Source: Bryobacterales bacterium
GTDB lineage: Bacteria; Acidobacteriota; Terriglobia; Bryobacterales; Bryobacteraceae
Reading direction: 5' to 3'
DNA length: 5,567 nucleotides
NCBI GenBank assembly: GCA_003132865.1
Contig: PKYZ01000935.1
Location: 14,975 to 20,541, forward strand
A program made the position numbers and the translations under genes. The notes below the pieces were generated by a model that was not told the origin of the DNA, did not search any database, and worked only from the letters and a program-made list of their open reading frames with translations. Shown piece after piece: positions 1,680 to 4,787 of this stretch (position 1 is the first letter of the stretch; the number at the start of each line of letters is the position of its first letter).

Positions 1680-1698
1680 ATTGACTTCAACTCTGCGG

Positions 1699-1866
1699 CT
1701 ACACGACCGGCCGGCTCTCGCTGAGTGCGCAGCCGTCATGGCCGCAGTTGCACGAAATCTCCGTTGTGCCGCTCGCATCTTCGCAATATTGACTGCAATA
1801 CTTGCTGTCTCGCCCGGCTGGGCAGTTGCAAGCCGGGTGAGCACACTTGCTGGTTTCTTGAGGCAT
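1699..1866 (-). CDS. Small bacterial metallothionein (SmtA/BmtA-like)
   Basis: This 55-residue protein starts MPQETSKCAHPACNCPAG. It has eight cysteines (C8, C13, C15, C24, C28, C39, C41, C46) and two histidines (H10, H43). The layout is CxHxxCxC, then YCSQYCED (CxxxC), then CNCGHDGC. The central CxxxC and the terminal GHxGC block match the zinc-finger-like core of bacterial metallothioneins such as cyanobacterial SmtA, which bind Zn(II), Cd(II) and Cu(I) through Cys thiolates and a few His in the cytoplasm. The expected role is buffering or detoxifying metals. ATG 1866 is preceded by AAGGAG with 9-base spacing, a near-ideal start. The gene lies in a different frame from the long open frame that covers it. 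The tail after C46 (ALSESRPVV) has no Cys, unlike SmtA, which ends in more ligands. I read every codon of this gene from the sequence. The family assignment rests on the Cys/His pattern. Confidence 0.88.
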   Translation of the reverse strand: MPQETSKCAHPACNCPAGRDSKYCSQYCEDASGTTEISCNCGHDGCALSESRPVV

Positions 1867-1875
1867 GACCGTGTT

Positions 1876-1881
1876 CTCCTT
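1876..1881 (-). promoter_or_regulatory. Ribosome binding site of the metallothionein gene
   Basis: The minus strand reads AAGGAG, then 9 bases, then ATG at 1866. It is one of the strongest Shine-Dalgarno matches in the window, and it decides that the small frame beneath the long open frame is the real gene here. Confidence 0.8.
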
Positions 1882-1902
1882 GCGTAACAGCTTAGCAAGC
1901 GA

Positions 1903-1930
1903 AGAGCCACTAGGCTAGGTGCAGAGTCAA
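1903..1930 (-). promoter_or_regulatory. Candidate promoter/operator of the metallothionein operon
   Basis: On the minus strand a TTGACT hexamer (1925-1930) is followed by CTGCACCTAGCCTAGTGGCTCT. This holds a tandem CCTAG and an imperfect dyad (GCACCTAG against CTAGTGG). A consensus-like -35 followed by a dyad in the spacer is the layout of MerR-family metal-responsive promoters, which have long spacers. No convincing -10 hexamer is seen, and no regulator gene lies in the window. The metal-control reading is inference from the gene downstream. Confidence 0.3.
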
Positions 1931-2064
1931 GGGATTTGGCGATCAGTGAGTTTTCGCACCCTTCGGTTTCCACGGCTACTCAGATCGCAGAGCCACACTG
2001 AGGATGGTCCTTAAAGACGTCCTGAGGCTGCTCGCCTGGGGGACTGGCTGCGGGTCTGCCGGCC

Positions 2065-2093
2065 AGCGTGGATGCCCAGGATGGCGCCACGCT
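2065..2093. repeat. Inverted repeat at the inner breakpoint of the permease remnant
   Basis: AGCGTGG (2065-2071) and CCACGCT (2087-2093) are exact 7-base inverted repeats 15 bases apart. They sit where the minus-strand permease piece ends and the plus-strand C-terminal piece begins. A hairpin here could have helped an inversion by template switching. Confidence 0.45.
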
Positions 2094-2176
2094 CCGCTCC
2101 CAACGCCATTCGGATTCACCATCTCGCGCGTGCGCAGGCCGACCGTGCAGGAGATGACGCCATAGATGCCGGGCGC

Positions 2177-2203
2177 CACGTAGCCGTCCATCGGCTGCAC
2201 GTG
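2177..2203. repeat. Hairpin between two opposite-strand permease pieces
   Basis: CACGTAGCCG, loop TCCAT, then CGGCT-GC-ACGTG: a 10-bp stem with a two-base bulge. It lies at the change from the minus-strand IYGVIS piece to the plus-strand PWLAIVG piece. Its core TAGCCGTCCATCGGC (2181-2195) recurs with 13 of 15 bases at 2387-2401. Confidence 0.5.
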
Positions 2204-2386
2204 AAAAACCGGCGGCGTTCGCAGAAGGAACCCGGCCCTTGGTTGGCCATCGTGGGGATCGTCGGCGACGCGCGCCAGTACGGGTTGGACAGCGAACCGA
2301 ATCAGGCGGTCTACCTGCCGCAAGCGGCCGATCCTTTCCATTACTCCCGGCTGGGTCGATCTCCCGTATAGCGGCGCGCGACTCGT

Positions 2387-2401
2387 TAGCGGTCCATCCG
2401 C
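2387..2401. repeat. Second copy of the dyad repeat flanking the inverted permease piece
   Basis: TAGCGGTCCATCCGC matches 2181-2195 at 13 of 15 bases. Like that copy it forms a small hairpin (GCGG, loop TCCAT, CCGC). The two copies flank the inverted PWLAIVG segment almost exactly, at the boundary to the N-terminal piece. Confidence 0.5.
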
Positions 2402-2690
2402 CCACTCCCTGCGCAAGAGCGACCACTCTGTCCGGATTGCGATAGGGCAATTGATTCAACAGGACGGCTTTGACAACGCTGGAGGTCGCGGTGTTTGAGC
2501 CGACGCCCAGAGCGACGGTAAGAACCGCGATGGCTGTGAAGCCCGGATTTTTGCGCGACATCCGAAAGGCGTACCATGCGTCGCGAAGGACGTTTTCGAG
2601 CAAAATGGGAATGCGCACACTCCAGACATAACGCGGCCATGTATTGCACGCCATGCGTCTCGAAACCGTCTAAGCTAAATAGTGAACCGT

Positions 2691-3322: not shown

Positions 3323-3823
3323 TCACAATATGTTGACCGCCCGCGCCGCCAACAACGCCAGCGTGGTCAGCGATATCGTGGACTGCACCATCATCATCCC
3401 TTTCGCCCATCGCGATAGAACCGGAACATCCGTAGGAGAAAAGGCCGTGCTGGTATTGAACGCCAGGAACAGGTAATCCACGAAGCCGGGCATCCACTCC
3501 CGGTCGCCCAGCGTCATCTGCGGGAACAGGAACGCGCCTTCGGTGTGCTCCCCGCGCAGCTCGCGTTGGTTGGGTCCGCCGGCATCCAATCGCCAGTACC
3601 ACGAGGCGAACACCAGGATGTTCGAGATCCACAGCGCGCCGGCGGAGCGCAGCAGGTCGCGCGGCGCTTCCTTGCGGTCCGGCAGAGCGGCGATGAGCAG
3701 CACCAGCGCGCTGATCATGGCGGCCGTGATAATGCTCAACATGGTGTATCCCACTATTTGATTGAGCGCAAACTTAGAACGCCGATGCAAGACCATGCCC
3801 ACGATGGAAAGCGGCGCCACCAC
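3323..3823 (-). CDS. 5'-truncated integral membrane protein with channel-like pore segment
   Basis: The 166 codons from GTG 3823 encode hydrophobic segments at about 3-12, 25-47 (MLSIITAAMISALVLLIAAL), 57-77 and 145-165. A semi-hydrophobic loop lies at 113-132 (GFVDYLFLAFNTSTAFSPTD). Conserved-looking landmarks are WISNILVFASWYWRLDAGGP, FLFPQM and LSRWAKGMMMVQS. Uncharacterised bacterial membrane proteins of about 200-230 residues share these. The loop plus last helix resembles a potassium-channel pore loop plus inner helix, but TVGYGD is replaced by TAFSPTD, so conduction is uncertain. The frame stays open upstream of 3823, and its translation back to about 3848 (VIVISGFAS) is still hydrophobic and membrane-like. 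A stop appears at 3875-3877. The original 5' end is therefore probably lost at the transposase boundary near 3846, with a few tens of residues missing. GTG 3823 has no visible ribosome binding site, so this is likely a pseudogene. Confidence 0.65.
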   Translation of the reverse strand: MVAPLSIVGMVLHRRSKFALNQIVGYTMLSIITAAMISALVLLIAALPDRKEAPRDLLRSAGALWISNILVFASWYWRLDAGGPNQRELRGEHTEGAFLFPQMTLGDREWMPGFVDYLFLAFNTSTAFSPTDVPVLSRWAKGMMMVQSTISLTTLALLAARAVNIL

Positions 3824-3845
3824 CGAAGCAAAGCCCGAAATTACA

Positions 3846-4787
3846 ATGACTTGCGCGGACTGCGAAGTGCGTTGTCAACGCTTCGGAACACATCGGAACG
3901 GCCTTCGCAGGTTTCGCTGCCCGCAGTGCAAAAAGACCTACACCGAACCGCACCGCCAGACGCTTGGCGAAATGTACGCCTCTGAGGAAAAGGTTCTGCT
4001 GGCCCTTCAACTCCTGATCGAGGGCAACTCGATCCGCTCTACGATGCGCACTACCGGCCTGGACGGGAACACGATTACGAAGGCCCTGATTCTCGCCGGG
4101 GAACGTTGCGACAAGGTCATGGCGCGGCTGATAGTCAATGTTCCGGTTAAGGACGTTCAGTGCGATGAAATCTGGGGATTCGTTCAGAAGAAAGAGGCGC
4201 ACAAATTCCCGTTCGAGAAGGATGACGATTCCAAGGGCGATGCCTACTGCTATGTGGCGATGGAAACGCATTCCAAGCTCGTTCTGAACTTCGCCCTAGG
4301 CCGTCGCAATCAGGCCACTACGGACGCCTTTATCGAAGGCTTGCGTCATGCGACCGCCACGCAGAGATTTCAAATCAGTACCGATGGCTTTCAGCCCTAC
4401 ATTTCGGCAATCACTACGACTCTTAGCGACCGCTGCGATTATGCCCAACAGATCAAGGTCTACGCGGTCCCTCAAGACGAACAGCGGCGCTACCCGCCCG
4501 CTGAAGTGGTTTCCGTGGAGGAAGTCCCAATCATGGGCAACCCGGACTCCAAGAGAATCTGTACCTCGCACATCGAACGCCAGAACCTCACGATTCGCAC
4601 GCAGATGCGCCGCATGACCCGACTCACGAACGCCTTCAGTAAGAAGTGGGACAACTTGTGGAGCGCCTACTGCCTGCACTTCGCCTACTACAACTTCTGC
4701 CGGACCCACAAAACGTTGCGCATCACGCCTGCTATGGAAGCGGGGATTGCGGACCATGTATGGGATCTGGCGGAACTGCTGGCGTAG
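3846..4787 (+). CDS. IS1-like DDE transposase
   Basis: From ATG 3846 this encodes 313 residues. An N-terminal zinc ribbon has C3, C6, C25 and C28 (MTCADC and FRCPQCKK). A helix-turn-helix follows at about 45-75 (LLIEGNSIRSTMRTTGL). The DDE catalytic domain has candidate acidic residues D107 (VQCDEIWGF), D180 (STDGFQPY) and E244 (SHIERQNLTIR), and ends with the helix YCLHFAYYNFCRTHKTLRIT. This is the single-frame architecture of IS1-family transposases, with InsA-like DNA binding and an InsB-like catalytic part in one protein; no frameshift is needed. The frame is open back to TTG 3762, with ATGs at 3795 and 3804, but that stretch encodes the membrane protein on the other strand, and homologous proteins begin near the first CxxC. 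No ribosome binding site is evident at any of these starts. All catalytic residues are present, so the enzyme could be active. Confidence 0.85.
   Translation: MTCADCEVRCQRFGTHRNGLRRFRCPQCKKTYTEPHRQTLGEMYASEEKVLLALQLLIEGNSIRSTMRTTGLDGNTITKALILAGERCDKVMARLIVNVPVKDVQCDEIWGFVQKKEAHKFPFEKDDDSKGDAYCYVAMETHSKLVLNFALGRRNQATTDAFIEGLRHATATQRFQISTDGFQPYISAITTTLSDRCDYAQQIKVYAVPQDEQRRYPPAEVVSVEEVPIMGNPDSKRICTSHIERQNLTIRTQMRRMTRLTNAFSKKWDNLWSAYCLHFAYYNFCRTHKTLRITPAMEAGIADHVWDLAELLA

What the first reader, a model, noticed from the sequence alone, without database searches (positions are those of the whole stretch)
1699..1866. Metallothionein gene hidden beneath a longer false open frame
A 55-codon gene with 8 Cys and 2 His in a metallothionein pattern and a near-perfect AAGGAG site lies in another frame under the apparent 5' extension of the propeller gene. 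Gene callers favouring the longest frame would miss it and would also mis-start the propeller protein. Its Cys layout (CxHxxCxC, CxxxC, CxCGHxGC) and Cys-free tail differ from classical SmtA, so it may be a separate acidobacterial class.
Basis: partly seen in the sequence, partly recalled or inferred. Interest (0 to 1): 0.7.

Follow-up and report, generated by a model that had tools for sequence, protein, structure and literature searches.

The report
Divergent bacterial metallothionein-like gene
A tiny, probably metal-binding protein gene really does sit in this stretch of probably acidobacterial DNA, overlapped by a misleading longer reading frame, and it belongs to a widespread, mostly unnamed cousin group of the known bacterial metallothioneins.

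Summary
On the minus strand, 1866-1699, a 55-codon ORF with 8 Cys and 2 His lies behind AAGGAG, in another frame than the 98-codon extension of the neighbouring gene. It is a real gene: 25 relatives by phmmer, 1360 by profile; its own frame is conserved, the long frame is not. Propeller homologues mostly align from about residue 100, so the extension is very probably false. The protein is homologous to SmtA-type metallothioneins (hhalign score 37.5; at most 20.8 in 40 controls keeping Cys/His in place) but scores far below the PF02069 cut-off. In 297 genomes of the phylum the new profile matches 45, PF02069 over cut-off 1. So: a divergent, mainly acidobacterial subfamily of a known kind. His10 holds in the near subfamily only (25 of 40 wider loci). 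Not borne out: that gene callers miss it (relatives are in protein databases), and that a Cys-free tail is distinctive (Pseudomonas has one). Metal binding and expression are inferred. In passing: a recN-MT-ispH-squalene-hopene cyclase order in some relatives.

The parts
1699..1866 (-). metallothionein-like gene, 55 aa, 8 Cys + 2 His
1876..1881 (-). AAGGAG ribosome-binding site, 9 nt before the ATG
   Evidence: similar purine-rich stretches before most relatives, judged by eye
1680..1973 (-). apparent, very probably false 5' extension (98 codons) of the propeller-type frame; +1 frame relative to the small gene

Best explanation
The ORF is a protein-coding gene for a small, probably cytosolic metal-thiolate protein, a divergent relative of SmtA-type bacterial metallothioneins. 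Shown: the reading frame is under protein selection, and ten Cys/His positions are almost invariant in the near subfamily. C8, C13, C24 and C28 align with SmtA C9, C14, C32 and C36 (that these four hold SmtA's zinc-finger-like site is recalled, not from a call). Inferred: with C15, C39, C41, C46, H10 and H43 it folds around about three Zn(II) or up to four Cd(II) ions, by analogy with the ten-ligand PflQ2 metallothionein (3 Zn or 4 Cd), and works as a high-affinity zinc buffer or sink, with thiols that can also take up cadmium or oxidants. No repressor gene was recognised beside it in the window, so control, if any, would come from elsewhere.
For: Relatives: 25 by phmmer, 1360 by profile at E <= 1e-3, 120 of them listed, 46 genome loci. 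Ligands: in the window protein aligned with 126 database proteins (the best-scoring ones, of 1360) eight of ten ligand positions are 127 of 127 and two are 126 of 127; all 46 rows of A2 keep all ten. Frame: over 12 relatives, differences by codon position are 163, 172, 358; against the nearest locus L001 identity is 80% in this frame and 39% in the long frame, which has 3 stops there; dN 0.12 with dS not estimable (saturated) in this frame, dN 0.40 and dS 0.13 in the long frame. Homology to SmtA: hhalign 93.4%, score 37.5, best of 40 controls with Cys/His kept in place 20.8; the two best of three PDB hits of the profile are bacterial metallothioneins 6gv7 and 1jjd; the A2 profile scores 12 SmtA-type sequences at 8.4-17.5 bits, best of 600 shuffled 7.4; bridging sequences L126 (PF02069 35.1 bits, over the cut-off) and L032 (27.3 bits). 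A source already names two listed members metallothionein (P0029, P0105).
Against: The window protein scores 8.2 bits against PF02069 (cut-off 33). Weak PF02069 matches alone mean little: at E <= 1 that search also rings in E. coli, B. subtilis and Methanosarcina controls. PDB matches are not significant singly (E 1.7 and 4.3). Both AlphaFold models (mean pLDDT 67.6 and 76.1, no metal) gave no significant fold match and did not find SmtA. No metal sensor or metal transporter was recognised among the seven window ORFs scanned or among the Pfam families matched by two or more of 90 adjacent genes of relatives; 61 of the 86 families there, ranked lower by number of genes, were not shown. Metal binding, expression and induction were not tested.
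Confidence: 0.8

Rival explanations
1. The protein is a small structural zinc-finger (treble-clef or GATA-like) protein of SmtA descent that binds one or two zinc ions for protein or nucleic-acid contacts, not a metal buffer.
For: Strong conservation of non-ligand residues (P11, S25, Y27, D30, E36 invariant in 127 aligned proteins), which a mere metal sink would not need. 'SmtA-like zinc fingers' are a known kind (title of Blindauer 2002, seen only as a reference). One wider member, L043, weakly hits DUF2116 'probable treble clef' (E 0.084). In some relatives the gene stands in a housekeeping gene order.
Against: Ten Cys/His ligands within 39 residues and two CxC motifs are more than a finger needs and are typical of metal-thiolate clusters (established knowledge). 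Closest profile relatives are metallothioneins.
Confidence: 0.17
2. The long frame is the real gene and the Cys-rich ORF is a chance by-product.
For: The long frame is open for 98 codons upstream; it is also open over the small gene in 11 of 46 relatives.
Against: No propeller homologue was found in any of the 46 loci around the small gene (tblastn E <= 1e-3); none of 12 propeller loci, with short flanks, carries the small gene, and in 11 of these 12 the match begins at residue 95-123, in the twelfth at 162 at the edge of the locus; in L072 a stop codon directly precedes the codon aligned with residue 104. The long frame is closed over the small gene in 35 of 46 relatives. Of the matches without stops the lowest first residues are 67, 90, 91 and 95; the one at 67 (L078) begins at 106.
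Confidence: 0.02
3. Both frames are used in part: the propeller gene starts at ATG 1739 inside the small gene, overlapping its last 41 bases.
For: MTAAHSARAGRSCSRRVEVNLRLILLSAPVVLAGVIA could serve as a signal peptide; the TTG at 1679 has no clear ribosome-binding site by eye.
Against: The frame of the closest homologue, L072, is closed before residue 104; no ribosome-binding site before 1739 by eye.
Confidence: 0.15

Closest known systems
SmtA, Synechococcus elongatus (PDB 1jjd; Pfam PF02069)
   Same: Size, three ligand blocks (CxxxxCxC, YCSxxC, CGHxGC), profile homology
   Different: SmtA has 9 Cys and 2 His in its metal core (Zn4Cys9His2, PMC10119931 passages); here 8 Cys and 2 His. The SmtA Cys11 position is His10; the last CxC is lost and a new Cys39 makes a CxC before GH; the loop before YCS is 7 residues shorter; no smtB-like gene recognised beside it
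PflQ2 MT, Pseudomonas fluorescens Q2-87 (PDB 6gv7)
   Same: Ten ligands, Cys-free C-terminal tail, no adjacent metal-responsive regulator (PMC7387436 introduction)
   Different: 9 Cys + 1 His as ligands; longer disordered tail (length recalled); classical CxCxxCxC start
NmtA, Anabaena PCC 7120
   Same: A metallothionein ORF lying within a larger annotated ORF and away from its regulator (PMC8790569 passages)
   Different: There the larger ORF is on the opposite strand; NmtA is of the BmtA family according to that paper

Membership tests
PF02069 Metallothio_Pro | score at or over the curated cut-off (33 bits) | tested here: not met
   8.2 bits for the window protein; best E of the 46 rows of A2 4.2e-6, which is L032 at 27.3 bits
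PF02069 Metallothio_Pro / SmtA type | detectable homology to the family | tested here: met
   hhalign 93.4%, score 37.5 against 20.8 at most in controls
SmtA type | 9 Cys with CxCxxCxC, CxxxC and CxHxxCxC | tested here: not met
   8 Cys; His at the second Cys, no final CxC, extra C39
SmtA type | four Cys of the zinc-finger-like site | tested here: met
   C8, C13, C24, C28 align with SmtA C9, C14, C32, C36; that these form the site is recalled
metallothionein (function) | binds several metal ions in thiolate clusters | not testable with these tools
   needs purified protein
smt operon | divergent smtB repressor beside the gene | tested here: not met
   none among the seven window ORFs scanned against Pfam and/or NCBIfam; not defining, Pseudomonas lacks it too
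NCBIfam | match to any metallothionein model | tested here: not met
   no such family at E <= 10 for any of 46 rows

The most novel reading that the evidence does not exclude
A phylum-typical class of bacterial metallothionein, unseen by standard family models, whose ancestral job is not metal detoxification but supply or protection of core metabolism: in about 15 of 86 loci it stands between recN and the Fe-S enzyme gene ispH, in front of squalene-hopene cyclase, and in six Acidobacteriaceae loci before transketolase or rpiB.
Probability: 0.15. Interest if true: 0.65.

Novelty: new variant of a known kind. Interest (0 to 1): 0.42.

Why it matters
About one in seven sampled genomes of the phylum (45 of 297) carries a metallothionein-like gene that the standard Pfam model finds over its cut-off in one of 297. 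If these proteins do bind metal, metal handling in Acidobacteriota, a major soil phylum, is under-annotated, and a ligand set with His in place of one Cys gives a natural comparison for how zinc affinity is tuned in bacterial metallothioneins.

Tried and rejected
Viral contigs (10 stretches matched a pattern, none a relative) and plasmids (no match at E <= 0.1) gave no relative; SmtA itself matched 7 plasmid records, one of which, in Sphingomonas, has an ArsR/SmtB-family gene directly before it. Structure: two AlphaFold jobs gave middling models; Foldseek found only weak matches to yeast Spp1 (best E 2.0 and 3.7) and VIA-align none: uninformative. Promoter scan of 1500-2150 found no sigma-70-like site. 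I looked by eye for SmtB- or Zur-like inverted repeats in the 47 upstream stretches printed and saw none; no test was made.

Literature: eight full-text searches; in the titles and abstract beginnings listed I saw no paper on an acidobacterial metallothionein class. Several lists were cut (10 of 14, 20 of 28, 15 of 19, 10 of 42, 10 of 152), only open-licence papers are held, and three papers asked for by identifier, among them a 2018 survey of metallothionein diversity, are not held. So 'not described' is only as strong as that. Papers: PMC7387436 introduction read and passages; PMC8790569, PMC10612145, PMC10119931, PMC8692599 passages only.

Rows dropped: A2 used 32 of the 46 loci and 13 of the 25 proteins, plus the window's; L040 is cut by a contig end and L046 has an early stop. 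Of 56 places listed, 40 were fetched. The 46 loci were found with patterns covering positions 8-15 or 23-30, so their conservation there is biased; the 126 proteins are the best-scoring of 1360, biased to near relatives.

Full report
What is there. The minus-strand ORF 1866-1699 reads MPQETSKCAHPACNCPAGRDSKYCSQYCEDASGTTEISCNCGHDGCALSESRPVV. AAGGAG ends nine bases before its ATG. On the same strand a 623-codon frame starts at GTG 1973 and runs to 102; its first 98 codons cover the small ORF in the +1 frame. No whole genome is held for the window; that it is acidobacterial is inferred from its nearest relatives.

It is a gene. phmmer against 5.8 billion proteins gave 25 relatives, best E 3.3e-29; the profile of these gave 1360 at E <= 1e-3, of which the best 120 were listed, nearly all named 'hypothetical protein' or not named, two (P0029, P0105) 'metallothionein' and one (P0054) an unrelated name. 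In the window protein plus 126 listed relatives eight of the ten Cys/His positions are invariant and two vary once. One pattern scan of GTDB species genomes gave 46 loci: 41 carry titles of acidobacterial groups, four are Rhodanobacter or Frateuria, one Nitrospira (that groups such as Vicinamibacteria belong to the phylum is my knowledge).

Which frame is selected. Over the 12 nearest loci, differences from the window by codon position of the small frame are 163, 172 and 358. Amino-acid identity is 53-80% in the small frame and 19-40% in the long one. The long frame is closed over the small gene in 35 of 46 loci, open in 11. For L001 the small frame has dN 0.12 with dS not estimable; the long frame has dN 0.40 and dS 0.13 (all).

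The neighbour. The 623-residue protein has no Pfam or NCBIfam family (best E about 0.1). It has matches in 24 of 61 genomes of the L001 family, most of the strong ones aligned from about residue 98-122 on; among matches without stops the lowest first residues are 67, 90, 91 and 95, and matches reaching to 32, 43 or 75 are read through stops. In 12 loci compared again by tblastn the match begins at residue 95-123 in eleven and at 162, at the edge of the locus, in one; L072, the closest, has a stop directly before the codon aligned with residue 104; none of the 12, with short flanks, carries the small gene. No homologue of the propeller was found in the 46 loci. The likely start is TTG 1679, 19 bases after the small gene's stop; ATG 1739 inside the small gene cannot be excluded. 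Whether the two genes share a transcript is not known.

What it is. Against Pfam the window protein reaches only 8.2 bits with PF02069 (cut-off 33). 23 of 26 near relatives match PF02069 at E <= 10, and 21 of 46 wider ones at E <= 1, the best 27.3 bits; at such thresholds unrelated control genomes ring too, so this alone is weak. Profile against profile, the family matches 12 SmtA-type sequences with probability 93.4% and score 37.5; 40 controls with all columns permuted reached at most 20.0, and 40 with Cys and His kept in place and the other columns permuted at most 20.8. In PDB the two best hits are the Pseudomonas and Synechococcus metallothioneins, though singly not significant. A tree of 98 rows on 54 columns puts the 12 SmtA-type sequences and two bridging acidobacterial ones (L125, L126) on one side of a branch with support 98/90; few columns and long branches make this tentative. 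L126 passes the PF02069 cut-off (35.1 bits).

How widespread. In 297 genomes of the phylum of L001 the A2 profile matches 45 at E <= 1e-3 (43 at E <= 1e-6). PF02069 matches 3 of 297 at E <= 1e-3, 1 over its cut-off, and its control rings in Synechococcus elongatus. At E <= 1e-6 the profile matches 6 of 99 genomes of the phylum of the Nitrospira locus, the centre included, and 1 of 185 of the class of a Rhodanobacter locus, the centre itself. In the 40 acidobacterial loci fetched for a closer look position 10 is H in 25, M in 7, N in 5, T in 2, K in 1, so the His10 layout marks the near subfamily, not the whole.

How it most likely works. Four Cys correspond to the zinc-finger-like site of SmtA (recalled); two CxC motifs and two His supply the rest. 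With ten ligands, three Zn (four Cd) as in PflQ2 metallothionein is the natural guess (PMC7387436 introduction). Bacterial metallothioneins bind Zn with low picomolar to low femtomolar affinity (PMC10612145 passages), so buffering of cytosolic zinc is the likeliest role. All of this is inference from sequence.

Context in relatives. Of 86 loci, 15 have a RecN-like gene upstream, 14 an IspH/LytB gene downstream and 15 a squalene-hopene cyclase gene after that; the three sets overlap but are not identical (which prints at most 14 names of each; the families were named by Pfam in two loci, L089 and L103, and the rest joined to them by blastp). In the tree these genes fall mainly in two separate groups of rows. 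Others stand before transketolase (3 loci) or RpiB (4 loci), L031 before both. The window shows neither order. Co-transcription and function are untested.

Noticed in passing
L089, L103 and 13 further loci: The family's gene lies after a RecN-like gene and, in 14 loci, before ispH (lytB), with squalene-hopene cyclase next, on one strand in the rows printed: a recurring order in acidobacterial genomes.
   Followed up: partly
L019, L026, L027, L031, L032, L034: In these Acidobacteriaceae loci the gene is followed on the same strand by transketolase and/or ribose-5-phosphate isomerase B.
   Followed up: partly
window 3762-4787 (+): IS1-like transposase ORF (NF033558 E 1e-21, below its cut-off; PF03400 E 2.9e-6, over its cut-off) that overlaps the 5' end of a DUF1345-like ORF, 3323-3823 (-, E 2.6e-6, below cut-off); perhaps an insertion.
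   Followed up: no
window 1980-2654 (-): ORF with a weak MacB-like periplasmic-domain match (E 0.0048, below cut-off), just upstream of the small gene; by eye L001 also has a permease-like gene next to its copy.
   Followed up: no
e.g. G306 (three places), G040, G090, G145, G212 (two each): Ten of the 45 genomes with a match have two or three matching places, some of them partial.
   Followed up: no
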